From positions 36,634,751-36,698,750 of the forward strand of contig NC_037590.1 in the NCBI RefSeq assembly GCF_003073045.1: a stretch of 64,000 nucleotides of DNA. Direction: 5' to 3'. Positions within the stretch are counted from its first letter, which is position 1; each line of letters opens with the position of its first letter. The notes below the pieces were generated by a model that was given only the letters and a program-made list of their open reading frames with translations, made no database searches and was not told the origin of the DNA. This DNA is from Pomacea canaliculata. Taxonomy: Eukaryota; Mollusca; Gastropoda; Architaenioglossa; Ampullariidae. A program made the translations under genes and the position numbers. Below are positions 1-52,099 of this stretch, one piece after another.

Positions 1-3000
1 TGGTTGCCATGCCAACTGTAGTAGCTGCTGGCACTAAAACAGCCAATGCCAAAAAAAAGGCAACAAAAGCAGCAGCAAAAATGATAAAGGCTGCATTAAC
101 GGCATCAGCATCACCTGGGAAAAAAGGCAAAGGAAAACAGGTATCCTAGAATTATTCAGATCATTGCCATTTTCAGTTACTATTAATTGAAGTAGAGTTG
201 GGAAAGTAATAGACGAAGTGTACTGAATTTTCTTTTTTTATCCTGATTGGAGGTGGCCAGAAGTATCTTCTCAGTGTTAAACTCAATAATTATCAGTTTT
301 ATATGAAAGAACTCCAGCTTTTTCTGTTTTTAGTCTTTATCAGTAAAAGGTAGTCCCTTGACCTTAGTCATGGAGGAGTTAGATACCCCACATTTTGTGG
401 CCATCTTTTTTTGTGAGGATAGTGTCCATATTCTTTCCCTTGCTGTCTTTCTCCAATCTTCTAAGGAGTTGGGTTCCCATTCCACTGCTGGGAAAGTACA
501 TTGCGGCACCCAGGTATTGAATTAGTGTGCGCACTTTTGGGTTCAGTACCATTGCTCTAACTACTGTAAGAGTTATTACTATCACATTCTCCTCCATTAT
601 CCATACATATGCAGTTCAAAAAAATCTGTTCTGGTTTTAGGAAGGTTAGTTAATCAAACTCCTGGTAGATGAATGGAAATTAGAAACATATTTCCAGATT
701 TAAAAAATTTTTTTTTTTAAAGTAAAATGGCTTTAACGCCAAAACAAAATTGGCTTATCTCCTTTCATTTTTTTTCCATTTGCCCATGACCCTGGTTCCT
801 TGCACGCATAGATGCCTTTTAAATTTAATCAATATCAGATTGTGCTTATGTTTCTGTTAGGCATCCACCGTTGATGATGATGGTAAACCAGGAAAAGGTG
901 CTACAGCAGCTGGTGGGTTCACCATCTTATCAGAGAAGAAGCTTTTCCTTGGACAGAAGGTGTGTTCCTAGGATATAACCCGATGTTGGAAGAATTACTT
1001 TAGTTTACAAGTAAATACAGCATGCATAAGCTATGAAGAAGTGCTATAAATTTGTTGATGTTTATAAATGTACTTATTCATTTTGTTTCAATTTGAATTG
1101 TAGATATAATTTATTACTAACATGGTTTGTGTTGTATCCTTATATACGTTTGTTATGTAAGCTACTATATTAAGAAGAAACACCAAATATCTACTTATTA
1201 AGATGATGATACTGTTATTGTCTTATACTAATTTGGCGATCTTATTTCAGTTGACAGTCTTGCAGGGAGATATTGTCAAAGTTGCTGCTGATGCAATAGT
1301 CCACCCAACCAATTCCACATACCACATGGGTGGGGAGGTTGGTAAGTATATCACAGACTTGAGAATTGTTCTCTTTACTAATTTTTTTTTTGTGGTTTAA
1401 TTAGATTTGATTTTTTTAAATTTATAATTTTCCATTAATTTTAGGTCAAGCTATTCAGAAAGCTGGTGGCCGAGAATTTCAGAAAGAGATTGACAGCTTA
1501 AAATCTCTACAGCCATCCATAGGCACAGCTGAAGGTTAGTAAAAAAATTTTTTATGTTAACACATGCACTAGTATTCGTATGTATGTACCATACTTATGT
1601 GTGCACAAGATGTGTGTGTGTGTGAGAGAAGGAGGGAGAGGTGTTTGGGAGATAGTAGTATGACCAGTTACCAAAGTACAGTGTGGTCCAAGTAACATGA
1701 AATGCTGCTCTATCTGAGCTCTATAAATCACAGACAGCAATTTTTTATGAGTAAATTTGACAGTTAATACAAGGGGTATTCAAAATTTTACTTCCAGACA
1801 TAATGGCCCTCCCTTAGAATTTTCTGGTTGTTTTTTTTTTTTTTTTTTGTAGTTTTGTCCATTGCCTTCTAAAATTTGGATGGTGATTCATCAATTGTTA
1901 TATATGTATATTGTCAAATTTTCATTGCCTAGATGCAGCCACATTTTTAGCACTTTTTAGTAGATTAGATTAGATTATTGCCCGTTATGCCGGTCGGCAC
2001 GTAGGGCAGTGACAAAGGTCCTCGACTTTGCCTGTCCTGGGCTAGACTCCCCACAGTACCCCAGCTGAGGTTTAGGGTCGTTCGGCGCCAGGTGATCTTG
2101 GGCCGACCTCGCTTGCGTTTTCCTTCCAGTGTAAGGCAGTTTTTATGATGGAGTTGCTCCCGCCTCGAAGGACGTGACCAATCCAGCGCCATCGCTTCTT
2201 CAACAGGATGGTGGCCATACTCTCCTGTCCACACTGGGCAAGTAGTTCTTCGTTGGAGATTGTCCTTGGCCAGAAGATGCCCAGGATTCTTCGCAGGCTT
2301 TTGGTGTGGAAGACTGACAGTTTGTTGAGGTCGCTGTCAGTCATTCGCCAGCACTCCGAGCCATACAGTAGAGTGGACATGACCAGACTCTGGTAAAGTC
2401 TCAGCTTGGTATTGATGCTGTACTGTGTCGACTTCCAGATGTTGCGTAGGCTACAAAAGATGCCCCTGCCTTTGCTCAGTCTGCTCTGGATGTCACGGCC
2501 TGCTCCTCCATCTTGCGTGACCACGCTGCCCAAGCTTTCAACCATCGGCAGGTCTTCTCCCTCTATGCTGATCGGTGTTGGATTGGTGCTGTTCAGGGTC
2601 ATCACTTCTGTCTTTGTCCGGCTGATGTGCAGTCCGACCTGCTGCGCAAAAGTGTGCAGGCGAATTGTCTTCTCCTGCATGTGCCGGTGGGTGTGTGACA
2701 GCAGGGCCAGGTCGTCGGCAAAGTCTAGGTCTTCTAAGTTCGTGGAGAGTGTCCATCGTATGCCCCTTGGTTCATCTTCCGTTGTATGGTGCGTTACCCA
2801 GTCAATGACAAGGTTAAAGAGCAGGGAAGACATCACGCAGCCCTGTCTCACTCCGGTCCCGACCTCAAAGTAGATGTCACTGTTTCCAACACAGCATGAA
2901 AAGTTCGCATAGAAGCTTTTGATCAGAGTACAATTTCCATTGGTATTCATGGATGCTGTCAAAAGCTTCTGGAAATCTACGAAGTTAATATAGAGCTGCC

Positions 3001-6000
3001 TCTGCACTCTGTGCACTGTTCAATGATGTTGCGTAGTGAGAATATCTGGTCGGTGCATCCTCTTCTTCTACGAAAACAGCCTGTTCTTCTCTAAGTTGTG
3101 TGTCCACTGCCTCTGAGATCCTCGCCAGTTGTTTGCATTCCTTTCTTTGGGATTTTGACGATCACTCCTCTGGTCAGTCATCTGGGACTTGCTTCCTTCC
3201 CATACCTGCGGTAAATAGGGGTTGCAGGATATTGGCTGCCAGTTCTGGGTCTGCCTTGGAATAATTCAGCATTCAGATTGTCCTGACCTGGTTCTTCAAG
3301 GACTTATCGCTGTGATGGTCTCAATGGCTTCTTGTATGTCGACTTCTTCGGAAGGTGGATTCTCTCTGAAGTGTTCAGCGTAGCTTCCCTCTATTGCAAA
3401 TAATAAGTCAGGATTGACAGGTATTGCATACAAATGAGCTTGTGAAGAAAGCAACACACAGGCAAGATTAAATGTAGGAGAAATTATGTAACAGTATTAC
3501 ATTTAATAATGAGCAAGGTGAGCAGAAGGCATGGAAAGAAGTCCGATATTGTGGCATACATTATACTAGATATGAGTAAAATTATTTCAATGGTAGGTGT
3601 TTGTTGTATTTAACATTGTGACAGGCAATAAATAAGGCAAATATGGTGAAAGGATATTGCAAACTACAATAAAACAAGTCTCCCAGAAAAAACATTAAAG
3701 GGAGTTATACCTGCCCTGCTGTGCATAATTTTCTTTTATCTTCTCTCTGCATATCATGTAGAGCCAAGGTTTGTTTAGGGTATAGCACTCAGTAAATACC
3801 CCCGAGCACAAAGAATGGAGTTTAGCAAGAACAAACAAAATGCATTAATATGGAAATAACATATATTCCTGATCATATTTTTCCCATGCAGGGTTGCATA
3901 AAAATACAAAATCAAACATGTTTTACTTAAAATGTGAGCAAATAAAGTTAAATCCACTCAGTATCTCAATTTGAGGATATCAGAATATGTTTTATAGTGG
4001 TCCAGAAATCTTTACATGAGTCTGTAAGGTCTGCACTATATGAATAAAGTTTATTACAGTATTTAGTAAAAGAATCAGACATAAGTTAATGTATTTTTTA
4101 TGCAGGATTATAAATCTACACACTTGTGTACACAAACCTTTCAGTAAAATTGCTTAACACAGCGTTTCTGTTGTGATTGTTAGCTCATCAGTCACCTCTT
4201 GTTATGGATCTTTTATTTTCTTCAAGGAAAGTATTTTTGAACATGGGGTTTCCCTCTATTGATGCGTGTTAAACACTGCTTTTATCTCATTTTGTAGATT
4301 CCAAAGGTGCCACTATCCAGTACTTAAGAGATATTGGGGCAGCTTTAGATGTATCAGTCAATATTTGTTATGGTAACGGAAGACTTTACAAGACCAAAAA
4401 AGTGACATGGATTTTAATGTTATTAATTTCTTATATATATTCATTTGGAAACTTCTTGTGCCATTTCAAAATCTTCATAGTGCACAGATTTCTTAATGCA
4501 CATATGAGGCTGGCTGTTGGCATGGGTGTGCTAGCTTTCACTTTGAAAAACTTGTCCTATATTTACAGTCAACCCTGTCCATTTATTTTGATAATAGGCT
4601 AGCATTCCATTCACAAATATACTCTGTGGAAATATTGTTAATATTAATTTTTATCCCCAGAGAATTTTACTTTAAATGGTCTAAAATGATCACATTGTAA
4701 GTGACCTGTGACATTGTAGCTACTACTTGCACTACCCTGAACCATAGCGAAAGGTGGAAATAGCCTCTTTGAAGGCCAGTCAGGAAAGATGCTAATGTCA
4801 AGCATGTCAAACAAAGTGGGAGAACAGATATTTGAAAATGACTTCCCCTTTGTAAACTAAAAAAGTGAACTGATTTTGCTCTCTCAATACTTTAATTATA
4901 GAAATATAAACAGTTGAAAAATATACTACATGTTGACAGATGATTGGTTAGCATTTATCCTAGTTTTACAGAGATACCTTCTGGAAGGCAGGCTCGTTGC
5001 TTGGTGGGTTAACAAATAAATTATGAAATTATATTTAAAAAAAACCTATCCTGAAGATATTTTGTTTTAAAAAAGTCATGTTGTATTGCTGAAGTCATTT
5101 GAGAGGCAGACAACATCCTCCGTTTCAGCTGCAATGTGTCCAGGACAGAAATTCACAGCGAAGTATGTTATTCACGTGAACAGTCCCTCCTGGAGTGACA
5201 CCAACTCACAGCAACAACTGAAATTAGCTGTGGAGAATATCCTCAAGCTTGCTGATGAGAAGCATTTGAAATCAGTGGCTCTGCCCTCTATTAGCAGTGG
5301 AAAGTGAGTACTTCCCTTAACTTACTCTTTTCCACCAGTGTCTGAACATGGCTGTGCCTTCCAGTAGGGCTTGATGTAATGTGCCTTTGGTCAGAGTGAT
5401 CTTTATTTTGCCTTGTCTTTTCTAGTGGTTTCATCATCTTCTAAATTTGGAAACTGAGTCTTTAAGGCCAAGACAGACTCAAAATTGAGCAAAACAGTTA
5501 AATTTAACTGATGTGCCTGCATGCATTTTCCTGATATTCCGACTGCTGCAGTGAGGTCACAGGTATGGCCCCTGGCATTTTCCCATTACATACATAAACC
5601 TTTCCTCCTCATATCAAATAACATTCCATTCCCAGGAAGTTATTGTAATGGAATGTTTTGAGAAGCAAGATGCAAGGCAAATGTTATCATTTCTGGCTAA
5701 AGGCATGATGGTATTTAACATGTTCAGGCAGTCAGGTTATTATTTTTATTGTATCCTAGCAACCATTTGTCCGGGTCATAACTTCCCTGCAAAATTTGTC
5801 ATCTGCTGCAATGGTCCTACGTGGAAGCTTGACAATGCACAAAGCCTTTTGGAGACAGCAATTATTAACTGTCTCAAACTGGCAGATTCCAAAAACCTCA
5901 AGTCTCTGGCTGTACCATCTCTAGGCAGTGGGCGGTAGGTATACTTGCTGGTTTGACATTAGTCCTGATTATTTATTTTCCAGCACAATAGTATAAACTA

Positions 6001-6945
6001 TTTTTGTGTAATCTTCATTTGTTGGCTTGTGTGATGTTGTGTCTGTCTGTCTTAACTGTGGCAACAGATAACAAATTGTTTAAAATGACATGCACTTTTT
6101 GACCATATACTGATGATAAGTGGATAAAACTAATAATTTAAAGTTATCAATCTTATTGAGAAGCACAAGTCTGGGGATAATGATATACAAAAATTATTGC
6201 ACCATTTTAAATAGAAAGAATTTGGCCTTGTGAACGTGCAGACAAAAATTCAAATGTGTATTGTTCCCAATTCTGAAAGTTTGCCTGCATACTGTTTTAC
6301 TTGTTTGCACCACAGTCCAACCATTTTTTTTTATTTGCAAGAATGTCTCTTACAGACTGACAACTAAAACAATCTGAAGAACCAGTTGCTGAACACTTGC
6401 AGGATTTCCTTATCTTTGAAGATTCCTTGCTTTAATCTTTTCAGAGTTTCAACAAAACAACTTTTGTTAGATCTGTTCAATGTCTTTAGGCCTGCACCCC
6501 ATTTGTCATGCAGTCTTTAACAGCGGCTACTGGCAACATAACATATGAAATAGTACAAGTAGTGATGCATTTTGGATGTTATGAGGGCAATATGTGAGTC
6601 TGGTAGTATTTCTGGAGAAATGACTTTTTGGTAAGTCTGTTCTTCCACATCTTGTGGAAAGAGGCATTGTAGGCAAAATAACAGTGAGGTATAGTCCCCA
6701 CTGTATTTGTATCTTCTGTCATACATTAACTAAACTCCCTTTAACATTTTGGTAAAGGCGCACATTTTTTTCTGTGTTGCAGTGGAGGATTTCCAAAACA
6801 AACAGCAGCACAAATCATTTTGCAGTCTATTCGTAACTACTTCAGTTCTACCGCCAGCAGTTCCCTTAAGCAAATCTATTTTGTGCTTTATGATACTGAA
6901 AGTGTGAATGTCTACACATCAGAGCTAGGCCGTTTGGACTCGTAG
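1..6945 (+). CDS. MACROH2A: Core histone variant macroH2A, 3' part (linker plus macro domain), partial at the 5' end
   Basis: macroH2A replaces H2A in nucleosomes of repressed or specialised chromatin; its macro domain can bind ADP-ribose. The histone fold lies to the left of the window. Exons read 1-140, 861-959, 1251-1341, 1445-1534, then either 5129-5303 or 5760-5934, then 6783-6945 ending TAG. The first exon is the Lys/Ala-rich linker. Exon 3 has the macro-domain signature GDIVKVAADAIVHPTN, and the last exon begins GGFPKQTAAQ, typical of macroH2A. Exons 5129-5303 and 5760-5934 are both 175 bp, both enter in phase 1 and leave in phase 2, and encode the same segment, so they look mutually exclusive. 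Intron 1535-5128 holds a minus-strand LINE. Poly(A) signal at 7073. The family call is secure; the isoform arrangement is inferred from phase and similarity. Confidence 0.93.
341..565 (+). repeat. SINE-like dispersed repeat, copy A
   Basis: This intronic stretch starts with AAAAGGTAGTCCCTTGACC and runs through a GGAG...TTAGATACCCC block and a GCGGCACCCAGGTATTGAA block. The same blocks in the same order, diverged, recur near 41474-41745 and 51388-51600. It has no coding potential I trust. Ends are approximate and no target duplication was resolved. Confidence 0.45.
1961..3400 (-). mobile_element. LINE fragment, reverse transcriptase C-terminal half and 3' end (Nimb/RTE-like)
   Basis: A 314-codon frame at 2072-3016 encodes the RT segments VRQGCVMSSLLFN and LDFADDLALLSH, then the post-RT motif LLYGSECWRMT and RRILGIFWPRTISNEELL. 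Upstream, 3017-3400 still reads as the linker before the RT (a PGQDNLNAELFQADPELAA-like string), but in broken frames. The 3' end is at about 1961-1980, a short AATCT repeat tail typical of non-LTR elements. The element is truncated at its 5' end and lies antisense in a macroH2A intron. Clade assignment is tentative. Confidence 0.85.
4298..4372 (+). other. Candidate cryptic cassette exon in the macroH2A gene
   Basis: A pyrimidine-rich acceptor ending TTTTGTAG precedes an open 75-nt block followed by GTAACG. The block is 25 codons, symmetric phase 1-1, and reads DSKGATIQYLRDIGAALDVS onwards without a stop in the macroH2A frame. It could be inserted between the exon ending at 1534 and either alternative exon. 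I recognise no homology; it may be chance. Confidence 0.3.
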
Positions 6946-7072
6946 GTTAGTCCATCAGTTATCACAAAGTACCATAAGGCCATGTTAGAAATTAAATTTT
7001 ATTACTTCACTTTCATTTTTTAACTGTTGATGTATTTTCTACTGTTGATACTTTGGGTTAAAGTGGATATTT

Positions 7073-7078
7073 AATAAA
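7073..7078 (+). terminator. AATAAA poly(A) signal of the macroH2A gene
   Basis: Canonical hexamer 128 nt after the stop codon, followed by a T-run. Confidence 0.6.
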
Positions 7079-10000
7079 ACTGCTCTATTTTTTTTTTAAC
7101 CCGGTCATATTAAAATGCCTTATCATTTAATGTCTTATTCATGTTCCCTTTTTTTTTTATCCCCAAAGGGAATGGGTTTGTTTGGAGTATGAGTCTTCGT
7201 TTCTGGTTAAGAATGATGTTTTTTATAATGTCACTTTCCATTATGTTTTGCCTCTTTGTGAATGATGAATTTCGTTCTAGCATCCATAGCAGTTTTATGA
7301 CAGTTTGTTTTTTCCTTTAGTGATATAAATATTAAAGCTTTTCTTGCAGAGACTTCTTGTTTTTAGAAGTTACACTACATTAAGATGATGATATCCAGAA
7401 ATAGTTTTTCCATATTAACTCCACCAATAAGAAACTAATATCAAGTCACAAATATTTCAAAAGAAGTTGAAAATTAATGGTTCGATGACTTGTGTTTCTG
7501 CTAAAAATTAATTGCAGTGTGTTTAAATCTTGAGTTTATAAAGAATATGCAAAATGAAACTTTCCCAACATTACTTGCCTTTCGTAGAAGAGTTATTGTA
7601 AGACAGTTTACACTGTGAGAGTCAATAAAATGTGAATTATTTCTCTGGATCTTGCCTGTTATGGTGATGTTGCACAAAGGGTTTGTTATTTCTTGTAATC
7701 CAAACATATGTTTACAGTTACTTCCAGCCATGTTAGAACCTTTATAAAAGCTAGATTTTTGCAAAATTTGTTTTAACCCTCCAAGCACAGCATAAAAGTA
7801 TAAACATTACAAAGACTGACTAATAACTGAAAACTGTGAAAACGACGCTAAAGTTTATTTTTTATTATTGCTCTTCTTAGGTAAACATTAGACCAAGAAA
7901 CCTATACATTTATGGAAAAGAGAATGGTTGAACTTTGCAATAAAAGTAATGAAAATCCCCTTCCGTGGGCTTCCCCAGCAAAGCCACAATTGTGACCCAT
8001 CGTGCCCAAAGAGTTAAACAATGAATCCTGCATAATAAGTCTTTGGAGCAAACTTTCAAGAATTTGACGAAGAGAAGCAGCAGGAAGAATTTTACATGTT
8101 CAACATTTTGTACACCATATTGGGGTTATTCTCTTTACAAGATCAACATATCAGGCAAGGTCCCAGTAATTGAAAAAAAAAAAAAGAGAGAGAGAGAGAA
8201 AGAATAAAGGAAAGTAAATGTTTCTTGCTTGTGAAAATTATGCAAAGTATAGAAATATTGATAGCAAATTAGAGGATATATTTGCAGGAGTGTTTTCAAG
8301 TTTTAGCAGGAAGTTCTCTAGTGTGTCTAATACAGAAATGCTTTGGTTCAAAAACAAAATAGGAAACAGTTCTTACTTAATCAGATACATTTTTATGTGC
8401 ATTTGTCTTGAATTGAGTCCCACCACAATTTCTTTTACACCAGATGTACTTGTGACTCTTCTGTGAAACATTTGAATGATTGTCACACTCTGTGAGTGTG
8501 TGTTTTAACCAATGATGTCTCATTGTGTGTTGTAACAATGTGACTGTATTATGTAAAACTTTTAAGTTATTCCTTACACATACAGAAAACTTATGAGAAA
8601 GATGGTGTGACCTTAATCCATAGGTAATGGAAAGATATATTTTGTTGGGTAGATATAAAGTACTTGCAGTGACATATATAGTGAAAAAAATTAGAGAATA
8701 ATGCATGCATAGTTTGATGGTATTAACAGCAGCCCTCAAATAATAGAAACATTTTTTCAAGGGATTCTATTGGTAGTGCTAGTCGAAGAGTGAAATTTTC
8801 TCTTAAAAAAAAAATCACCTTAACAGTCCCTGGAAACTTTCCACTACACTGTATGCAAGTTTGTTTGTTTTTTTTTTGTGTGATATATGTTGAATTGTAC
8901 AAGGAGCAGCAAATGATCAGATGATAATTTGATTTTGATGTCAACATACTTTATGGAGAAAACTTCATATAGCTAAAGTCCTTGGTAGGAATGAGGTGGG
9001 AGTTAATGTTATCACTGTTTTGTTTGAAATTCTGTGCATGGGTTTAGATAGTTTTTTTTTCCTAGCTTATAACTGCGTGGGCTACAGAAGAAGCTGTGAA
9101 TGAAAAGACTATGTAATCTTTCCTTGTTTGTTATTTTTTATGTGATGCATATTGTAAGCCATCAGTACTGTGATTCTGTGCATGTGATTTTGATTTATAA
9201 GACTGTTAATGAATTTTACATGTGATCTAGATTCTTACAGTTATGACTTGGTTACAAATTGTGTGCAGTGATCAAAGTGCATTGTTTGATTTGAGATTTG
9301 TTCGCTGAAAGATCATGCTTCACTGGTCAAAGAGAATACAATTACAATGGGCCATGCAGGCTTGAAGTTGACTATTTAACAAAAAAGCATCTTTGCCTAG
9401 TTGAATGGTGTTAAGTGCATGACAGTGTAGTGTGCTTTTGCTCATTATCCCAGTGTTCAATTGAAGAGATAAAGACTCATTAATTCTGAAAAATTTCTTT
9501 ACATCTAGGATTATTTCATGTATGGCTGCATGAGTCTTTGCTCAGTGCCAAGTCAAGCTGTGGTTATGTTTTAAATTTTTTTAAGGTTACTGATTTGAAA
9601 GGACCAGAGGAGAAGAATCAGTGGACCATCTGTTTACATGTAATTCACAAGCAAAACAACTTTTTAACTCATTAGGCAGCAGTTTCATGGCTGATTATAT
9701 ATCTTAGCAGCCAGATTATAATTTGTATCAAGCTCTGCATTATTTTGAATGAGGCGGAAGATGTGACTGTCATGTATTATGGTATTCTCAGCATTCTACT
9801 ATATATTTTATGTATATGAAATCAGTGAGCCATGTTTCATAGTTTGTCTGGTTTCAAGGTCATCCTTTTGGATTCTAACAAATTTTTCTTACTCTCGAAA
9901 GCTTAAATTAAGGTAATGGATGATTATTAAAAGACAGAATTTGAACATAGTCTTTTAGTTGGGTTTTTTTTTAAAAATTATTTTGTGTGTATGAAGGGGG

Positions 10001-32210: not shown

Positions 32211-35200
32211 ATGGCGACAGCAGTGAGTGTGCAGTCACCAGTGAGTAATGACATTCGTACACTGGTCCAGACCAGGAGAATTAGAGTTTCTCAGTTCTTT
32301 CAGGACTATGACAAACTTCGCTCAGGCTATGTAACCAGTAAGTACCTTTAAATTATATATTTTTATATATTTAATCGTTTGCATATTCTCATTTTCTCCC
32401 ATTTTATCTTAGTGGGTGTACATACATTTATTCTTTTGGCTATGACCAGATGTGCATATATATTTATACAAAAGATAGAAGGCAGGTTATTCTAAAAATA
32501 GTTATCATTTTCAGCCCCACAGTTTTTCCGCTGCCTGTGGCAGACCATGAATTTAAAACTGTCACCAGAAGAGGAGAAAGACATAATTGAGAGATACGAC
32601 TTGAAAAAAGATGGTCACATAAACTATCGCCTTTTCTGCGAAGACATTGATCTCAGATTTAATCCTAAAGATGTGCATGATGACCCAGCTTCACAGAAAG
32701 TTGAAGCTCCTGAGTTGTAAGTACATGTCGTTTGGTATAATTACAGTTGCAACATAGAAACAAGAGGTGATCATTTGTAAAACTTCCATTTTCCCCACAT
32801 AGATATGGTCAACAAGATGCGGAGAAGCGAGGCAGCAGGTAGAATATCCTAAAGAAGGAGACCATCCAAAAGCCTTTACATCATTCTAGCAGCTGTTCTG
32901 CTTTGCCTTTTTGTTAACTAAATTGACTGTCCATCCTCCCTTTATCTGAACTTTTAGACTTATGACTCATCTATCTTCTCACATCCTTCTATTCATACAC
33001 TTTATTTTATCAACAAGATGCTATCTGTTGACCATCTTTCCTCTGGCACCACTGTGCCTTATTGGCCTCATTGTATTACATGGGCCACGACTAGCACTTC
33101 ATGTTTTCTTCGGCTGGCAGCTATGTCTGGGACATTCTTGACTGCTCATGGCCAGCCAGTTAATGTCCTCCTGTCCAACTATTGTCATCCATAAAATATG
33201 GGGCCAGTCTAAGAGCACCTAACTACATTTATTAGTATAGCCATACTTTACATACAACATCTAGCAACATATTGATTATACAATTACTACAGTTATATTG
33301 AGAAAATGTAATTATCTACACTCATTAGAAGTATTTTCTAAGCGATTAAAAAGTTAATGATCTTATTCTTGTGAATTGGTGAGAAATGCAGTGCTTACTT
33401 ACTATGAACTCCAAACCTAGTACCATCATTAGTTTGCATAAACTCTTCCAAAAGCAGTTATAAAAAGTATAAAAAGGCAATGCAACATTTTTTTCTTAAT
33501 CCTTTTATAAGGTAGATCATTATAGAGTTTATTAAATTAGGAATGAAAATATGTAAATCCTGGCTTTTTCTTTGCTTTTGTTTTGTTTACAAGGTTTCAG
33601 CATTGTCCTCAAACTTGTCAAAACCTAAGTCCATTAGGAAACTGTCTTTCCCTTTATAAACATTTTAATGTATGGAGGAAAAATTAAGTTTAAAATTCCC
33701 AAGTATAATCTGAAACTGCTTTAGAGACCATAAAATGGACTTACCAGATTTTTTCTGTGTTGTTCATAAAAGTCTGGGAACCATTCGTTCAGTACAACCA
33801 TTGACCCAAACCTCAGAAGAGCATTTGCTGAACATACTGCACAGAATGGAGCATTTCTACAATGTTCATGGCATCAGTATTCGTACTGCATATGAAGATT
33901 TTGATGTACATCATATCGGTACAGTTACAGAGAGTCAGGTAGATATTACTGTTTTGATATCCTTTATCATTCAGTACAAACTATTGTTTCTCATCAAGTT
34001 GTTCTCCTAACTGCTGTTGTTCTTTTCATCTTTTGTATTCATTTTTATCATAATTATTATTTATGGAAATGAGATAATTGTTATAATTAATTTAATGTTG
34101 ATACTATTAACTGGTGATAATCACTGACACTAAGCAATTCTTAACATTTTACTAGGTTATAACAATAACAATAACAACCAACTTTATTAATCCCAATGGG
34201 CAATTTAAATGGGATTAATTAAAATTAATATAAAAAATTAAAATTTATAGCTGCTGATACGGAAAATTTAACCATGAAAGAACATGAAGTTTGAATAATG
34301 GTAGTAAATAAATATCATAGAAACAACTTATGATATGCATTTCAAATTAGTACTTTTTTTTTTATTAACTTTTCTTCTTATAGTTCTACCGCAATTTTCC
34401 TGGGCCGTCTAGTGTTAATGACAGCGATATAAAGTTACTGGTGGACAAATACAAGGACCCTGCACAGCCAGGAATGATCAACTATCTAAATCTATTCCAT
34501 GACATTATGGCCATATCAGATTATGTTGCCAAAGAGAAGACATCACCTGGTATAGTGGCAACAAATGTGGACTTTGTTCCACTGATTGTGAGAATTCATT
34601 TTGTTTCATAATTGCTATAGGGATTTATTGTCCATTACTCGACTGTCTCATATTTTATGCATGCCTGCGATGGATGTTGTCAGGTGAAGATGAAGATAAT
34701 GGGAGAAAAATTTGTATAAGGCAATAATACTGAGCATAAACAAAAGAGATTGCTTTACTTAGCAGTGCTGGTTTATCCATGCAAGAGGGGAAGACCAAAT
34801 GCTATTTGGTGACATACAGTGGAAGCTGAATTGAAGAATATAAACTAATCATGAGGGCATGTAATAGAGATGTTTTAAGCTGTATTTTCATGAAAAAGTG
34901 TAAAATGACAGTCTTTGAGTAACATCTGGGGATTGTGATCTTTTCCAGCTTGCTGGTGACCCTGCCCTGAATCAGATTTTTGATAAACTAAGGGTTGCAA
35001 TTTTTAAGAATGGAATTCGATCTTTGGAGTTTTTCAAAGATTATGACAAACTGCGAAGTGGAATCATTACAGAAAACCAGTTTGTCTGTGGCCTTGTATT
35101 GGCAGCAGGCAAAGAGGCCCAGCTGAGTCGTCCAGAAATACAAAAGATTGTTGATTTCTACCGTATTTCTGATGGACGAGTTCGGTACCGGGAATTTTGT

Positions 35201-38200
35201 GACATGCTTGAAAACAGTAAGTTGAAGTCTTTCTCTGTCAGTCACCATTCATTCAATTAAATTTATGCATTTTTTGAATGAATCTTTTGTGTAATTTTTT
35301 TCTTTGGGGTTTATTAATTTTTCAGACTCATTATGGGAGAAAATAATTCATGTCTATATTCATGACTACCAAAATACAGAGATGGCATATGGTTGGGGTA
35401 GGGAGGAGGGGGAGGTGTAAAGATTGAGTAGCTTGTATATATGCCAACTCTTCGGCTTGGACTGTATATTTTAATAGGCAACCAGAACTGAAGATCAATG
35501 AGCTCTGCATCATTTGGAATTAAAAATGTGAACAATCTGATACAAGTTGTTACATAAAGTGGTGATTGAGCTCATTAGAACTGACAATTTTCAGTTATTT
35601 ATTTTTACTTTGTTCCCATCAGCATTTACAGTTCCAGACTTAGAGAAGAAACCAACAGAAATGGTGGTACGGCCATTAAGAGGAAGCCTTTTCAGGGTGA
35701 GGAAATATTGTGGAAGTAAACAAATGCCAAAAAACTGTAATCTTTATGCCCATAAGACTAGTAACTATATCGCTCTCTGAGCTGACTTCATATTTGCTGA
35801 TGGTTTACAAAGTTATGCCTTGTTCATTCTTATCATTCTTATCATTAATCAGATGACAGAATGGGATTGACTGTAAATAGCTTATTTGATAAGTATTATG
35901 AAGTAATAAATATTTTCATGTAGTGATTTAAAACTGGTTTGCTTAAAAACAGAGAGAGAGAGAGCAAGCGGAAGGAAATACAAGAATACAAACTTTATGT
36001 GCAATGAAAACCAATCTTTGTATTAGAAAAATGTTACCAGGTAGAGAGTATAGTTACATCAAAAAACAAAAAAAACATTGTGGTAGTACATTTATTGGCA
36101 TAAATGGTAATATTTTTAGGGTCTGAAACCTTTGAGTAAAGAAGAAGAGGAACGTGTGCTGGTTGTACTTCGTGAACTCAGAGATAAGTGCCAGCAACAG
36201 CGAGTTTTGATGTATCCATACTTTAAAGATTATGACAGGGTGTGTATGCATATTGAATACATTTGTGAATTATTTTAAGTTAAATGTACATGTTGTCATT
36301 CTCTTGATTGCTGAATTATGACTAAGGGCGCTTTAAAACGCTACACATTAATTGGAGTGATCATATGCTTAATTATATCTTTTTCATTGATAAATCACTA
36401 TTCCAGTTTAACTGTGTGCTAGCTCTCTATTTGATTTAACATTTATATTGTGTAGCATCATAAGCCAAGTAGGCTGCACTTTCTGTGCTAATTAATGAAT
36501 ACTAAAACACAAGAAAAAGAGTTATAAACTCTAGCTAAGAATGTTCTGAAACAATATGAATAATACACTCAGCCTCTTAGACAGATTATCAACAAACTTA
36601 AAAGAATAAAGAGAAATAGAATTTGTAGTAAGAAAATGCTCAATATGAAATCTAATTTTCCAAAAAAAAATTTTCTGAAGTAAATTATATTATTTCCCAT
36701 GGGACCATAAAACAATATTATGTTTTCTATATAGAGCTGCGCATACACTCGTGTCGTCACCCCACTACAGTTTGGCCGCATACTACATTTCCTAGGACTG
36801 AATGTAAATCCACAGGACTTAAAATTGCTGGTGGCCAAGTTTCAGGATCCTGCCAGCGGTGATGTGGACTACCCTTCATTTGTGCAGGCTGTTGATGATG
36901 GTATTGTGCTTACTATATTATTTTGGCTGATATAGAGTCCTATAGTCAAGGCAATTTCGATATTCTGCCTATGTAATTCTTCATGCTTTGCTCCTTTTGT
37001 AGTCATTAACAGCATAACATTGAACTTCCAACATAGGAAAAAAAATCTGTTAAGTGAGTTGATTACCCATATTGTGACTAACTTTTCTAGGATTAAAGGG
37101 TTATATTCTATGTGTATGTGTGTGTGTGTTTTTTTCTTTTCCTAAAGAATTTGTGGGTCATGTTCTTGAGATTGAGACTATGGATGAGCTACCACCAGAA
37201 AAGAAAGTACCAGATGTTGTGTTGTCTTTTGATGACCTCATGGCTAGGATACGTCACATTGTGCTCACAAACCGTCTCAGAGTAAGCACACTATACTTTT
37301 AAGGACTGCTTCTTTAGCATTCCGGAACATGGGCATACTTACATTGTCATAACTAGAGCTACTAGGAGGCATAAGTAGCGTAACCATATCCATTGAGCCA
37401 CAGCATTATCACAGTTTTGACCATTTCTGAGCTCTAGGCAGTGACATTTTAACAAATATAGTAACATTTTATGGCTTGTATCTTTCAAACAAAAGAGGGT
37501 TACTCAAACCCATCAATTTAAATAAAAAAGCTTCAAAAAAAAAAATTATCTCAGCAACATGCATAGCTGCTAGGGAATTAAACAGAATGTATCAGTTTCC
37601 AGTGGTAGATTAAATCTTTCAGCTTGAATCTGATAAAATTGTAGGCCCAAAAATTACAGAAGAAAGATAACATTCAAAGATATTTTACTCGTTTAGCAAC
37701 ATTAATTCACAGCAAACAACAGCAATAACAACAACAAAAACCCACAGAAATTTAGAATAAAGTTTTCTTTTCTCCTTTTAAACCTAGCAATTGAAGCAAA
37801 CTATGGAATTTTAAGTTTCCAGTTTTAGTTTCCCTCTCTTAAGATATTAGATACATATGTACATGCATACTGGTCTGCACACAAAAATTTGCACTAATTT
37901 TCACCAGGTGAAGGAGGCCTTTGAAGATTTTGACCATCTACGAAGTGGGTCCATCTCTAAGACACGATTTCGTCGGTGTCTGGCAACGCTGGGGCTGAGT
38001 AAGTTGAGGCACCATGACCTGAATGATTCCCAGTTTGCATTGCTCTGCAGGATGTATCAAAACCCAATGAAAGAGGACCAGGTGCTGTGGGCAAAATTTG
38101 CTGCAGATGTTGAAAGTGGTGAGTGTTTCTGCTGCTTATCTGTCATCATCATTGTTGTCATCATTGTTGTCATCATCATCATCAAGCATCAGCAGCAGCC

Positions 38201-41200: not shown

Positions 41201-44200
41201 TTACTTTAAAGATGATATTGGCATCAACTACTTAAAATTCCTTCAAATTCTGCAACCTTGCGAACCAGAAGACTATAAGTACATAAAACGCTTGGAGGAG
41301 CTTCAAGAAACCCAGGCAAGGGGTTCTCTGCCAGAAAAAAATGCAGTGGGAGACTTGGAGAAAGTCCTTTTCAAGATAAAGACAAAGGTCAGTTTATGAA
41401 AATTTGATCCTGTTACATGCAGTTTTGTATGACTGAGATTAAATATCTGCAGCTTATGTGATAAAACTGTTTTAAAAGGTAGAGGTAGTCCTGTAACCTT
41501 TTGATCACTGGGGAATGAAGTGTAGGAGACTGACCTTGGGGCCGCTTTTTTTTCTCTCTGCCTTGCTGCATTTTCTCTTCCACCTCGATCCTCCCCCCAC
41601 CCTACTTTTTTGTATCCTAGGGGGTCAAATACCCATTTACCCACTGAATAAACTGCAGAAAGAATGCTGCACCACACAGGTATTGAACAGCTGAAATCAG
41701 ACCTAGTTTGGTAGTCACTAACCCTTGCTTCCCAATTAGAGCATAGTCAATCAGCTGTCCCTTGATCGTCATCTGTCATTGGGAGGAGAACATGGTTAGA
41801 TACAGGACCTGCCAATCTGGCATATTTTGAGTGATAGTGAGCAAGTCCTGTACAGGACGATCAGTCTAATCTTTGACGCTCGTAAGCCAGTTCCTCTGGC
41901 CACCGGAGCATCGACTACCCTCCAAGGTGCCTTGAAGGATGGTCTTCGACAAGCTGTAGTACCAGGTTACATGACCAAAGAAGACCAACTTACGTCACTT
42001 GGCTGTTGAACATAGAGGTTTGTGATGTGGCAATCTTGTTTCATATAAAGTAAGTAAGTAAGTCATTGGTTCTATGATCTCTGTATGAGATCCAGATCAC
42101 CCTCCTCAGGCACTTCTTTTTGAATGCCTGGATTCTGTTTGTTGTTTTGGCGAGTAGAGTCCGTGTGTCTCATCCCTAGAACAGGATCCGCACTTTCAGG
42201 GATTTGTATAGATTGCATTTGGTAGTGAACCTTATCTTATGGCTATGCCAGATCCTCTCTAGCTTAGCCATTGCTATTGTTGCTGTCGCGATACTGAGGC
42301 GGACATCTGGAGTGGAGCTGCATGCTGTCCTTGGAGAGGATAGCTCTGAAGTACTTGAAGCTGTTTGCCTCTTCGAGCTGTACCTAATTCATATATATCT
42401 CTGCTTGAATGTTATCATTGTTCATAACTTTGCTCTTTTCAGTGCTGGTCTCTATTCCATATGCCTTTGAACTGTCAGTCTGTTCGAAGGTCTTACAGCT
42501 CTTTGTTAGTACCTACTAACAGATCTCTGTTGTCAGCAAAGCGTAGGCTGCAGATTGGCCCTCCGCCAATTAAAATGGAAGTGTGATGGTCTTGAAGGGT
42601 TTCGAACATGATGTTTTTCAAGAAGATATTAAACAGCACCGGTGATAGGGTACATCCTTGACATATGCCTGCTGTGGTGCGCAAGTAAGCTATTTGTTTA
42701 TTCAGCAGTACTGAACTTGTACTGAACTTGTTGAGTTGTTATATAGGGCTTTCGTGACTTGAACAAAACCTTCTTTGATAATAAATTTTAAGATCACATA
42801 TCATAACCCCTTGTGCCAGACTCTGTTGAATGCCTTCTCAAAGTCAATGAAGTGGTAAAGGTCTAGCTGATGCTGAAGAAGCTTTTCTGTATGCAACAGT
42901 TGAAGATTTGCTCAACTGTACTTCTACGTGGTCTAAAGCCATCCTATTCTTCCGCAAATCGTAGTACATAAGCGGCTTTCCCCAAGAATCAGAGGACACT
43001 TAATTGTTTAATCTTTTTACACCGCTCTCTCCTGCCTGTTGCACGCTGTCTGAAAGATATAGTCATGAAAAGCCGAGTTACTCTGCACTTTTGTTAGGCC
43101 TATATGTGGTTCCCATGTCCTGTGTCAGTGGATAAAATGACTGACAATATTGCTAACTTCTGTGTACCATTACAATTCAGCTAAAACAGGCTAAACATTT
43201 TTGTTTTTATGTCATTGTGAGCAATGGAAGAGAGATCAAGAAAATCTCTCATCATGTAAGAAACCGAGAAAAGTCGCTTAAAACGAAGGGCGAAACACAC
43301 TTGCTATGTGTCACATTCCGCCCCTGATTCGCAGCTTCCAATGCCCATTGCAAGTCATCGATGATATCCAGAATCTCATGATGTCGAAATCTTAATCTTT
43401 GACCGATCGATCGGATTAGTTCTATCGTGAAATACTATATTTATGCTAAGGTTTCTTTCCGTTTTACGTAGCATCATGCATGCAGCAGCTATCTATAAGG
43501 AGCCTCAAGCTAGTTCTAGGAGGGGAAAGCCTATTCTCTACTTTCGCGGTCGGATCGGCCGCCGAGAAAGAATGAAACTTGAGAGAAGACTCACCCTTTA
43601 CCGTTAATGAAGGTCCGTGCACTTTACTGCACTTAGAGACTTGATCGACCTATGACGACCTCTTAAGTGGCAACGCGGCGCGACGAGACTTCGGCCCCAG
43701 TGGTCCAAGTTTTTTCTAGCGGGCCGGTCTCAAAATTCTGAGTTATGCCAGGTGACTGCACAACAAGCCTAGACAGAGGCGGCGTTAGGACCACGCGGGG
43801 CCTGGGTCCGACCATCCGCGCGGGGCCGGGGTAATGGAGTAAGTGTATCAATATACCTATTGATGTGATGCCGGAAGCACTGATTTACATACAGTTAGAT
43901 AGGCTGGATCAATTTCGCGAAATAACGCACGAATTTAGTGTTTTAATTGTTCGCAACCTTTGCCACTGTTTGTGACAGTAGCGGATTTTTCTTAAAGCGA
44001 AATAATATGATGACGATAACTTAAGGTGCAGAGGGCTGTTGTGTTCAGGTACCTTGGTACAGTGATCGACGGGAGGCTCTCATTTAGTGATCACGTGAAC
44101 CAAGTGTACAGACAGGCCCAGCAACGGCTGTACCATCTGAGGAGACTTCGCAGCTTCCACGTCAGCTCTGGGGTGCTGGAGACTGTGTACAGGTCTCTTG

Positions 44201-47200
44201 TTGAGAGCATCCTCTCATTTAACATCGCTGCCTGGTATGGTCACCTACTAGTCAAAGACAAGACAAGGCTGGCCAGAGTCATCCACCAGGCCAATAAAGT
44301 TATTAGTAAATCACAGGTGCCACTTTCTGACTTGTACCTTCATGCAGTCAGAAAGATGGCACATAAAATCATTTCGGACCTAACGCACCCTCTCCATCCC
44401 AACTTCCAGCTGTTGCCCTCAGGCAGGCGCTACAAAGTGCCATGTGTACTGAAAGCTGCCTACCAGAGGTCCTTCGTGCCAGCAGCCATCACCATCCTAA
44501 ATAAAGACACAAGGATTTAGGAGGAATCAAACACAGTCTGAAGAGAAGAGGGAGCTGACATCCATTACCAGCCATCATCTTGTTGAATGTGCGCTCTCTT
44601 TCGCACAAACAAGACGAGCTCTCAATCTAAATAATTAATGAAATGCAGGGATTTCTGTCACAGGCCAATAGATATCATAGATGACAATTTGTAATGTTGT
44701 TTGCCTACAGGTGATGAAAAGATAATAGTGATTATGTGTGTGTTAAATGTCTGTATAAGTATGCATGCCTGCCCTTGTGAGCAAAAGAAAAATTTCTGTT
44801 TTGGGGTCTCCTCGACAGACAATAAAGTCTGATTTGATTTGATTTGATAAACTGCTTGTTATTATTGCTGGGTTTAAAGTTAAGACATGGGTTCAATAAT
44901 TTGCTTAATTAGAACTTAAAAGTGTTTACTGAACGTCAATTTTTTGGTCACAACTTGTTTAACACAGCTAGCAATAAGTCATAAAGATGACCTCGGGGCT
45001 GAAGCGCGGGGCCCCTTCGAGAGCGGGGCCTGGGGCGGCCGCCCCATTTGCCACCCCCTAACGCCGCCTCAGAGCCTAGTGATAATGGAATGGACAACAA
45101 ATGAGTACATAATGGTGCTCACTTACTGAATCAATTGTGTAAAGTGAATTTGTGTAATTGTGAATTCGTACACTAGAACTTCAAAGCCAGCCTTTCCTTT
45201 GAAGACAGCCGCCCCCGGTGCTCTCAAACGACTCCATCAGACCTGTCAGCCGTGTTGTTTGTTATCTTTTTATCTTGTCTGTGTTAAAATGTTACGGACT
45301 GCCTATTTGTAACCCTGTTAGAATACATGTAAATGGAATAAGGACTGTAGTGGGTGTACCTGTCACTCGCGGAGTGCTGTTCGACAGCTATAGGACAGCT
45401 TAGGGTCTATCGGAATTTCGCATCATCAAGGCTCTATTCGGTCTCTATTAGCTCTGTGAAGGTAAAGGAAGACTATAACTGCTACATATCGTCACCTTAT
45501 TCTTCCTTTACATCGAGCTGTCGTATCCGAGTTGTCACCTTCTGAATTAGGAAGTCATTGTCTGAATGTTAGGTATTTGACCCTACTGTAGTCGAGGTGC
45601 AAGTGTAAGTCAGCGATCTCTCACCTTGGCTTGATTGCGTGGTTACTAGCGGAAATACGCAATGGTTGGAGAAATGATTAGGGTTTGCGATTAGTCGACT
45701 ACAAAAGCAAGTTTTATCTTGTGACAGTATTACAAGTTTAAAATGTTTAATAAATAAACGTGGGAGCAAAGCTAACCACCGTTTTCTTCATTGCTTGAGA
45801 TCTCCCCCTCAAGCACCGAGTGACACTGTGACTCAACATAAAAATACAGAGATTTTATGGAGATTCATCACTCAAAAGGTGGGGTCCTGAATGCAAAGAC
45901 AAATTAAGAACATTAAAATGGAAATATTTACAAGTATATCCAGTGTTCAAAGTAATTCCACATCTGCATATGTAATGCTTGGGTGTTCCTTCCTGAGACA
46001 TTTCTTTAAAAGAAAAAACAAGAGGAAAAAAAAAAAGAAGGAAAACAATCCAGTGACCAAGTTTGGGCCCCTTTCACAGCCTCGGTGCGGTTGCGCCAGA
46101 CCCTCCTGTTCCCCTCCCCCTCTTGCCAGGCCTGCCTATAGACCACCCACACATTTAAGTCACATCCTTACTTGCATGCACAAACATACAAGAACACATA
46201 TACCTAGTCAATCTGCGACAATGATTCATGCCACAGCTAATTGAAAAGAAGTTACTGTTACGTGGGTGGGACTTTCTGGCCTGTTTATGTCTATACCTGA
46301 CCCGAGGAAGTATATGATGAAATGAATTATTGGCTGTGTGTGACTAGTTGCCCACTATCTTCCCCCCTGCTCCAACTGTGCTAGGCATACATTATTCCTG
46401 GTCACGGTCAATAGTTACTTTGTTGAGTTGGAATTTCTGCTGCTGAATTCTGCTGCTGTGTTGATTGAGAACATCGGTATATTTTTTATTACCACCCAAT
46501 AAAAGTGACCATTCTTAGGCTGAACTTCGTCAGCTGGCATAAAAAGTAGAGCAGGACACCATTAATGTCTACTTATGTAACATGAATGTACGAGAAATTT
46601 GATTGCAGCTTTTGTGAGGGAGAAGTGTGAAAACGTATTGTTGCAGCTTATATAATTAAATTGTGACTTAGATATTGAAAATATGCGTAGAATCCAAATT
46701 ACAACAATAGAGTTGCTGCTTGCTATGAAGAACTAATAACAAACCTTGCTTTCATGAACAGGTCAGCAGGGAACGAATACGTTTAGAGGACTTCATGACA
46801 GATTATGACAAACTGAACTCGGGTCGCATGCCAAAGAACACTTTTCGTCGAGCTCTGATTCTGGCTCGTTTAGAGCTGTATGAATCTGAGCTGTCTCTTC
46901 TTGAAGACAAGTAAGTTTCTCCTCTCCCTTCCGTGTCAAGCAATCATTTTATTTAGCTTCATGGATAGATCATGGCATCTAGCTAGATGACATTCCTGCC
47001 TACAACTGGCAGCTAAAGGGCCTTTAAAGGACCAGAAGAGAGGCATTAGTGACAGGCGTAAAGTTTGCAGTTAGGTGTGTGCATGACACTGACTTAATGA
47101 TTTTTCATTGACTTTTTTTTTAATGTTTGCAAATAACAATTGTCTCAAGGTATGAAAGTGAGAGGGACCCCGGCTATGTGGAATACAGACGGTTTTGTGA

Positions 47201-48025
47201 CGAGATAGAATCCATCTTCACAATCAAGCACTTGGAGAAAATGCCACAAGAGGAGGTCTTGCCCTTCAAACCTCCTGTTGAATGGGAACTGAACTCTCTC
47301 ACGCCTGAGGAAACTGAGAAATTCATGCAATGCATGACCAAAATCAAAGAAAAGGTTACACTGATCAGCCTTTCTCAGATGCAATTCTTATTCAGCACCC
47401 TGTACACTCAGTGCATATTTTTTTTAGTTAATATTTCATTCTTTTTCTGTCAGGTATATTCTGCAGTCAAAAATGAAACACAGAATTTCAAATGAATCAT
47501 GAAAGAAATCTAAGGACTAATCGGAAGCACAGTTTCTCTCACCTTTTTTACTGGCTTTTTAGATTAGACATACAGAGTTAATTATTTTCAGTAGACTGAA
47601 GTTTTTCTATCTACTTATTATTCTTTACATTTTCCGACGTTTTGATTTGGTATTTTTAAGTGTTTAAGGTAGAGACTAACCTCATAAAGATTGCATGTTT
47701 TGTTCCCTGCTGCTGCACCTATGACAGCGATGGTTCCTTGGTACTGGTCATCTTTGTGCATGTGAATTGAAACTATGCTCTCCTGTCAGCTGTCAGTTCA
47801 AAACAGCTTCAAAAGCCTTTTCTTTTTATCACCCTCCTTGTCAAAGCTTCCTCGTTTACTTTGATGCTATGTTGTTGTCCCTTCATATGTTTGTTGTTAT
47901 TTATGTGTATTCTGTATGTATGCTAATTTTGAGTCTATATTTGTATATTTGTGTATTTTACTTTTTGTTTAATTTTTTTAAAGCACATTGCACCTACTCT
48001 CAAGTTCGAAAATACGCTGTAAACA

Positions 48026-51653: not shown

Positions 51654-52090
51654 TTAATACCAGGATTTCAGGAGTGACCTACAAGACAGCGTTCGGGAGT
51701 TCCAGATGGGGTGTAGGCTGTTGAAAGCCTGCCTGGCCATGTTGATGCTGCTTTTGGTGTCATCATCCACTCTACCGTCCTTGCTGACAATGCTCCCCAG
51801 ATATGTGAAGTGGTCTGTTTCTAGGATGTTCTCTCCTTGAAGTTGGATTGGGAGTTCCTGCTTCTTGTTCATTCTCATCACTTCGGTCTTCTTTCTGTTG
51901 ACCTTTAAGCTAGTCTTCTCCGCTTCCTCAGCTAGCTTACCGAGTTTGGTTTGTGCATGTTGTTGCCGATGAGATAGAAGACTGATGTCATCTGCAAAGT
52001 CCAGATCCTCTAGCTGTTTGGTGAAGGTCCATTGGATGCCGGTTGTTGTCTTGCGCATAATCCAGTCTACGACTATCAGGAAGATTGTTG
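51654..52090 (-). mobile_element. LINE reverse transcriptase fragment
   Basis: A 134-codon minus-strand frame reads GIQWTFTKQLEDLDFADDIS, LLSHRQQHAQTKL, then FTYLGSIVSKDGRVDDDTKS and HPIWNSRTLS. This is the FADD-containing RT segment and following thumb of the same family type as the 17.5-kb fragment. Truncated at both ends. Confidence 0.8.
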
Positions 52091-52099
52091 GTTAATAAT

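What the first reader, a model, noticed from the sequence alone, without database searches (positions are those of the whole stretch)
5129..5934. Mutually exclusive macro-domain exons in an invertebrate macroH2A gene
Two exons 456 bp apart have exactly the same length (175 bp) and the same phases, and encode the same macro-domain segment with different residues. The upstream one joins to give the loop PSISSGN-GGF, the downstream one PSLGSGR-GGF. Vertebrate MACROH2A1 makes the ADP-ribose-binding form 1.1 (loop PSIGSGR) and the non-binding form 1.2 with such an exon pair. Here the downstream exon keeps the Gly of the 1.1-like loop and the upstream exon replaces it with Ser. Either the exon switch is ancient or it evolved in parallel. 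I do not know whether it has been described in molluscs.
Basis: partly seen in the sequence, partly recalled or inferred. Interest (0 to 1): 0.75.

Follow-up and report, generated by a model that had tools for sequence, protein, structure and literature searches.

The report
Snail macroH2A with a swappable exon
The macroH2A histone gene of the golden apple snail carries two alternative versions of one ligand-pocket exon, apparently an independent invention of a splice switch that vertebrates place on a different exon of the same gene.

Summary
The window lies in Pomacea canaliculata, and a complete 390-residue macroH2A gene can be read. Exons D1 (5129-5303) and D2 (5760-5934) are both 175 nt, have the same phases and encode the same piece of the macro domain (31 of 59 residues identical). 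Their differences fall 23/12/40 on codon positions, which 0 of 4000 neutral simulations matched. Both exons together, or neither, shift the frame, so exclusive use is the only full-length coding outcome. No transcript was seen.

Human 1.1 and 1.2 share PSIGSGR and differ in a segment equal to snail exon B, two exons upstream; B is single and 1.1-like here. The snail pair is therefore on a different exon and most likely independent. "Gly to Ser = non-binding" is also unsupported: the change is at 312; glycines 224 and 314, reported as essential, remain in both forms. Ser fills 312 in 16 of 23 other macrodomain loops read in this genome, and in PARP14 and E. coli YmdB. The switch more likely tunes the diphosphate loop and an outer helix than turns binding off.

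The parts
1..140 (+). 3' part of exon 3 of macroH2A (alanine/lysine-rich linker); this exon begins 5' of the window at L009:9868, exons 1 and 2 at L009:8289-8463 and 8991-9097
   Evidence: GT-AG borders, one open frame of 390 residues; H2A fold, best PDB match macro-H2A.1
861..959 (+). exon A, end of linker and start of macro domain (FTILSEKKLFLGQK)
1251..1341 (+). exon B, LTVLQGDIVKVAADAIVHPTNSTYHMGGEVG: same extent as the segment by which human 1.1 and 1.2 differ; single copy, 1.1-like (Gly224 kept, no three-residue insert)
   Evidence: (no second copy found in 960-7500)
1445..1534 (+). exon C, leaves one base of the next codon
5129..5303 (+). exon D1, upstream alternative exon; joined loop PSISSGN-GGF
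   Evidence: Pfam Macro 56.1 bits for the stretch over it
5304..5759 (+). 456-nt intron between the two alternative exons
5760..5934 (+). exon D2, downstream alternative exon; joined loop PSLGSGR-GGF
   Evidence: Pfam Macro 49.1 bits for the stretch over it
6783..6945 (+). exon E, last coding exon with stop; supplies GGFPKQTAAQ and YFVLYD

Best explanation
This is the only macroH2A gene that I found in Pomacea canaliculata. It has a mutually exclusive pair of exons (D1/D2) for the stretch of the macro domain that ends in the diphosphate-binding loop. The pair arose by tandem duplication of one exon, most likely after the lineages to molluscs and vertebrates separated and independently of the vertebrate 1.1/1.2 pair, which duplicates a different exon. 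One exon is taken per transcript; both or none shifts the frame. Both isoforms keep the glycines reported as essential, so I expect both to bind ADP-ribose-type ligands, with affinity, ligand preference or partner surface tuned by Ser312/Asn315 and a re-written outer helix (D1) against Gly312/Arg315 (D2). Shown: gene, exon pair, phases, selection on the pair, position relative to the vertebrate switch. Inferred: exclusive use in RNA, independent origin, effect on binding.
For: Complete histone-linker-macro protein with either exon (domains for the D1 form). Frame arithmetic for one, both and no exon. Codon-position differences 23/12/40 of 57 codons; 0 of 4000 neutral simulations reached 40 third-position changes, and 30 of 57 residues identical exceeds the maxima of 26 and 24 in the two sets of 2000. 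Intron flanks unalike, 22% and 38% over 40 nt, so the duplication is old. Human 1.1 and 1.2 differ only in the segment of snail exon B. Gly224 and Gly314 are named as required for PAR binding (PMC6277393, passage); both isoforms keep them. Ser at 312 in 16 of 23 loops of this genome, in the first macrodomain of PARP14 chain 3vfq and in E. coli YmdB; the second of 3vfq has GTGN, Asn at 315. PARP14 macro1 and macro2 are listed as active ADP-ribosylhydrolases (PMC11920425, passages). Macro domains score 112.2 (D1) and 108.0 bits (D2). Ten-row tree: D1 and D2 sisters, 78/85.
Against: No RNA seen; no second mollusc examined. The tree is weak: the 18-row tree left D1, D2 and the human pair unresolved, and in the ten-row tree D2 with human (p 0.32), D1 with human (p 0.16), D1 with human macroH2A2 (p 0.086) and D1 with L037 (p 0.27) are not rejected. 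No splicing motif or RNA pairing exceeded chance, so the choice mechanism is unexplained. D1 is less like human (29 of 59) than D2 (34 of 59), and of six acceptors measured it has the shortest AG-free stretch (17 nt) and lowest pyrimidine share (0.60). Against human 1.1 the D1 form loses 21 bits relative to the D2 form, against macroH2A2 only 3. No binding data.
Confidence: 0.72

Rival explanations
1. An on/off ligand switch as in vertebrates, but at another site: D2 binds ADP-ribose and D1 does not, because the changes at 312 and 315 or the altered helix close the pocket, much as human macroH2A2 lacks binding with an altered loop.
For: The exon ends in the loop that is altered in human macroH2A2, PPFPSGRNCF, described as altering the loop that binds the distal phosphate (PMC8232725, passage). 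D2 is closer to human 1.1, and D1 loses 21 bits against 1.1 but 3 against macroH2A2.
Against: Gly314 kept and no proline; Ser312 and Asn315 each occur in other macrodomains; D1 scores slightly higher than D2 against Pfam Macro; in absolute terms the D1 form is no closer to macroH2A2 than the D2 form (159.5 and 162.5 against 162.7 and 165.8 bits).
Confidence: 0.2
2. One exon (more likely D1) is dead or almost never used: a relic of an old duplication.
For: D1 has the weaker acceptor by simple measures. Residues shared by human and one copy only: D1 departs at 9, D2 at 5.
Against: Open frame, canonical GT-AG, donor stronger than that of D2 (5.14 against 2.97 on recalled consensus weights); the third-position excess excludes neutral drift of either copy since the duplication as modelled; 56.1 bits to Pfam Macro over D1. 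Recent loss is not excluded.
Confidence: 0.08
3. The duplication of this exon predates the protostome-deuterostome split; vertebrates lost one copy and separately gained the exon-B pair.
For: Placements of D1 or D2 with human are not rejected (p 0.16 and 0.32). D1 shares YVIHVNSP and a Ser at 312 with a bacterial outgroup, L037.
Against: The ten-row tree joins D1 and D2 (78/85, not firm); seven residues are shared by D1 and D2 and not by human, though they were not formally polarised.
Confidence: 0.2

Closest known systems
Vertebrate MACROH2A1 mutually exclusive exons (isoforms 1.1 / 1.2)
   Same: Same gene family, same macro domain, mutually exclusive exon choice touching the ligand pocket
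   Different: Different exon: the vertebrate pair covers the adenine/ribose side ([12 protein letters not shown]...GGEVG against LNLIHSEI...), equal in extent to snail exon B; the snail pair covers the segment ending in loop 309-317. Human 1.2 has a three-residue insertion and loses Gly224; neither snail exon has an indel against the other or human, or loses a reported essential glycine
Human macroH2A2 (separate gene)
   Same: Differs from macroH2A1.1 in the same loop that the snail pair alters
   Different: A separate gene, not splicing; its loop is PPFPSGRNCF, unlike either snail exon
Tandem duplicated exon substitution events that arose independently in orthologous genes, such as voltage-gated calcium channels (PMC9741552, passages)
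   Same: Same kind of event: orthologous genes acquire duplicated alternative exons at different places in different phyla
   Different: Neither H2AFY nor MACROH2A1 occurs in the main text of that paper; here the protein is a histone variant

Membership tests
macroH2A | H2A histone fold plus linker plus C-terminal macro domain in one gene | tested here: met
   390 residues in one frame with either exon; D1 form: Pfam Histone 56.3 bits, Histone_H2A_C 29.4, Macro 110; best PDB match of the H2A part is macro-H2A.1
Mutually exclusive tandem exon pair | Homologous, adjacent, same phases, frame-incompatible when joined | tested here: met
Mutually exclusive tandem exon pair | Transcripts use one or the other, not both | not testable with these tools
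   no RNA data held; joined and skipped forms run into early stops
Vertebrate 1.1/1.2 exon switch | The duplicated exon encodes the segment between FLGQK and NTLEKK (with GGEVG in 1.1) | tested here: not met
   that exon (B) is single in the snail within 960-7500; human isoforms are identical in the segment of exon D
Vertebrate 1.1/1.2 exon switch | One form loses Gly224 and gains a three-residue insert | tested here: not met
   exon B carries GGEVG in both forms; D1 and D2 have no indel relative to each other or human
ADP-ribose-binding macroH2A1.1-type macrodomain | Gly224 and Gly314 present | tested here: met
   requirement taken from PMC6277393 (passage)
ADP-ribose-binding macroH2A1.1-type macrodomain | Measured binding of ADP-ribose or PAR | not testable with these tools
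   needs expressed protein

The most novel reading that the evidence does not exclude
Molluscs independently built a second splice switch over the macroH2A ligand pocket, on the diphosphate-loop side rather than the adenine side, so that chromatin can be loaded with histones that read different ADP-ribose forms (for example free or O-acetyl ADP-ribose against PAR ends) by tissue or state, without a non-binding form.
Probability: 0.3. Interest if true: 0.8.

Novelty: new variant of a known kind. Interest (0 to 1): 0.6.

Why it matters
In vertebrates the macroH2A1 exon switch decides whether a histone senses NAD metabolites and PARP activity. A second, independently placed switch in the same domain would suggest that splicing control of this pocket is favoured more than once, and gives a natural pair of macro domains differing in one segment with which to ask what the diphosphate loop does in chromatin. 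It also warns against transferring the 1.1/1.2 labels to invertebrate macroH2A isoforms.

Tried and rejected
Homology to the vertebrate exon pair: rejected by position. Gly-to-Ser as the mark of a non-binding form: not supported. Assembly duplicate or recent copy: rejected by 56% nucleotide identity and unlike introns. Second macroH2A gene: of 33 matches to the D1-form macro domain in the genome (a lower bound by the tool's note), 5 are exons of this gene (52-98% identity, D2 being the 52%) and 28 lie on C5 at 24-41%. Further exon copies: no third D and no second B found in 960-7500. Splicing regulation: seven recalled motifs (RBFOX two ways, QKI, MBNL, PTB, CELF, NOVA) in three intron regions against 200 shuffles each; the lowest share of shuffles reaching the count was 0.12, for GCATG in the D1-D2 intron. 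One TGCATG lies at 5518 in that intron; 23% of shuffles have one. Intron pairing: ten inverted repeats listed in 4700-6800 without a chance figure; duplex energies that would loop out D1, D2 or both were reached by 83%, 52% and 32% of 60 shuffles (a first run, timed out and printed nothing). Relatives in viral contigs and genome contigs: 2 loci each; L035 and L037 went into the tree, L036 and L038 gave no segment by my pattern and were dropped; no animal macroH2A was recognised. Plasmids: no match to D1. Papers: Rivera-Casas 2016 and Guberovic 2021 (DOIs recalled), Kustatscher 2005 and Novikov 2011 are not held under the ids given, so a prior description there cannot be excluded.

Full report
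What it is. The window is 36,634,751-36,698,750 of contig C1 of a 440,159,624-base genome in 24 contigs. C6 is 31,531,291 bases, exactly the scaffold N50 printed for Pomacea canaliculata in PMC6129957, and C1 is 45.4 Mb, the printed length of its longest scaffold (passages). The printed total, 440,071,717, is 88 kb smaller than here. The species is therefore the golden apple snail.

The gene. With 10 kb fetched upstream a complete macroH2A gene can be read: exons at L009 8289-8463, 8991-9097 and 9868 to window 140, then A 861-959, B 1251-1341, C 1445-1534, D1 5129-5303 or D2 5760-5934, and E 6783-6945. With either D exon it gives 390 residues and one terminal stop. For the D1 form Pfam finds Histone (56.3 bits), Histone_H2A_C (29.4) and Macro (110); the best PDB match of the H2A part is macro-H2A.1. 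Both macro domains match human macroH2A1.1 best (224.5 bits for the D2 form; 203.5 for the D1 form) and 1.2 less well (195.6 and 174.6). A genome search with the D1-form macro domain gave 33 matches: 5 are exons of this gene, 28 lie on C5 at 24-41% identity. At this sensitivity there is one macroH2A gene.

The pair. D1 and D2 are 175 nt each, enter after one base and leave after two bases of a codon, and have GT-AG borders. They share 31 of 59 residues without a gap; 2000 shuffles never exceeded a score of 14 against 162 observed. Nucleotide differences fall 23, 12 and 40 on codon positions 1, 2 and 3 of 57 codons. In 2000 neutral simulations from each copy to the same 75 differences, none put 40 on third positions, 18% (from D2) and 10% (from D1) stayed free of stops, and the highest residue identity was 26 and 24 against 30 observed. 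That simulation lets all change fall on one copy, so it argues against a long-dead D1 or D2, not against recent loss. Intron flanks are unalike (22% and 38% over 40 nt): the duplication is old.

Mutual exclusion. One exon keeps the frame. Both give a frameshift with a stop six residues after the junction codon; none gives a frameshift with a stop inside exon E. A survey of human exon pairs counts steric exclusion only when donor and branch point lie under 50 bp apart (PMC5740500, passage); with 456 nt between, and only 22 nt free of AG before D2, that is unlikely here, though I located no branch point. Borders are ordinary GT-AG. No regulatory motif or intron pairing exceeded chance. Exclusivity is inferred from frame, not observed.

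Not the vertebrate switch. Reading the printed PDB alignments, human 1.1 (1zr3) and 1.2 (1zr5) are identical from NTLEKK to the end of the match, PSIGSGRNGF included; they differ only in [31 protein letters not shown] against LNLIHSEISNLAGFEVEAIINPTNADIDLKDDLG. PMC8232725 agrees: a three-residue insertion in the adenine site and replacement of G224 in 1.2 (passage). That segment coincides with snail exon B, which is single and 1.1-like; no second B was found in 960-7500. I did not see human intron positions. The snail pair is on another exon, so one common exon switch is excluded by position. Independent duplication of different exons in orthologous genes is a known pattern (PMC9741552, passages).

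What the switch changes. Numbering from 1zr3, anchored on Gly224, makes the loop P309-S310-I311-G312-S313-G314-R315-N316-G317. PMC6277393 names Gly224 and Gly314 as required for PAR binding (passage); it also says that 1.2 and macroH2A2 lack these glycines, which for Gly314 does not agree with the 1.2 chain. Both snail isoforms keep both glycines; D1 has Ser at 312 and Asn at 315. I read 28 macrodomain loci of this genome, chosen from the 64 Pfam matches (two pairs of them overlap, L003/L016 and L006/L024). By one loop pattern 5 loci gave none and the rest 23 distinct loops, with Ser at 312 in 16 and Gly in 7; a looser pattern adds one Gly loop, PALGTGN in L008. The first macrodomain of PARP14 chain 3vfq has PAISSGVFG, the second PAIGTGNLG, E. 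coli YmdB PAISTGVYG. PARP14 macro1 and macro2 are listed as active ADP-ribosylhydrolases (PMC11920425, passages). A Ser at 312 is therefore ordinary for macrodomains. On the other side, D2 has Cys where D1, human macroH2A1 and the 16 of 23 relatives with that strand readable all have His (VIH). Neither exon is simply the intact one. Human macroH2A2 altered the same loop by prolines (PPFPSGRN), so this loop has diverged elsewhere in the family. Against tuning: relative to the D2 form, the D1 form loses 21 bits against human 1.1 and only 3 against macroH2A2.

Age and origin. The 18-row tree left D1, D2 and the human pair unresolved. A ten-row tree (PARP14 macro2, a long branch, and seven snail loci left out) makes D1 and D2 sisters, 78/85, not firm; D2 with human (p 0.32), D1 with human (p 0.16), D1 with macroH2A2 (p 0.086) and D1 with L037 (p 0.27) are not rejected. 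Origin after the split from vertebrates is favoured, not shown.

Literature. Ten searches of held papers, nine of them on this question, were seen as listings with abstract starts; several lists were capped (one search showed 15 of 5,380, 15 of 161, 20 of 65 and 66), and one search found none. I saw passages of twelve papers and looked in a thirteenth without a hit. In what I saw, no alternative macro exon in a mollusc is reported. The annelid study PMC12153100 kept one transcript per histone gene (passage), so it would have missed such a pair. Two key papers on macroH2A beyond vertebrates are not held.

Verdict. Observation confirmed; interpretation half right. A probable, independently evolved exon switch on the loop side of the macroH2A pocket, with tuning of ligand or partner more likely than on/off.

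Noticed in passing
window 4298-4372: A 75-nt stretch with AG before and GT after that fits the phase between exons C and D and keeps the frame; one match in the genome, itself. Possible cassette exon or chance.
   Followed up: partly
window 2072-3019 (minus strand): Reverse-transcriptase fragment (RVT_1, 50 bits) of a retroelement in the intron between exons C and D1.
   Followed up: partly
window 44020-44517 (+) and 51654-52091 (-): Further retroelement-like frames: RVT_1 at 51654-52091 (33.7 bits), and a frame matching ALKBH8_N, a model that I recall as hit by retroelement ends, at 44020-44517.
   Followed up: no
window 34919-35257: A reading frame with weak EF-hand matches, below the Pfam cut-off; similar-looking frames further on may be exons of the same gene, but 47124-47492 matched no family.
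   Followed up: no
G000 contig C5: 56 of 64 Pfam Macro matches in this genome lie on C5, many close together near 3.43-3.69 Mb: a macrodomain gene expansion.
   Followed up: partly
L037 (Sarcina sp. DSM 11001): A bacterial macrodomain with YVIHVNSPKW, close to the strand sequence YVIHVNSPSW of exon D1, and Ser at 312.
   Followed up: partly
window, whole: TGCATG occurs 86 times on both strands against 52 expected; 0 of 100 shuffles reach it.
   Followed up: no
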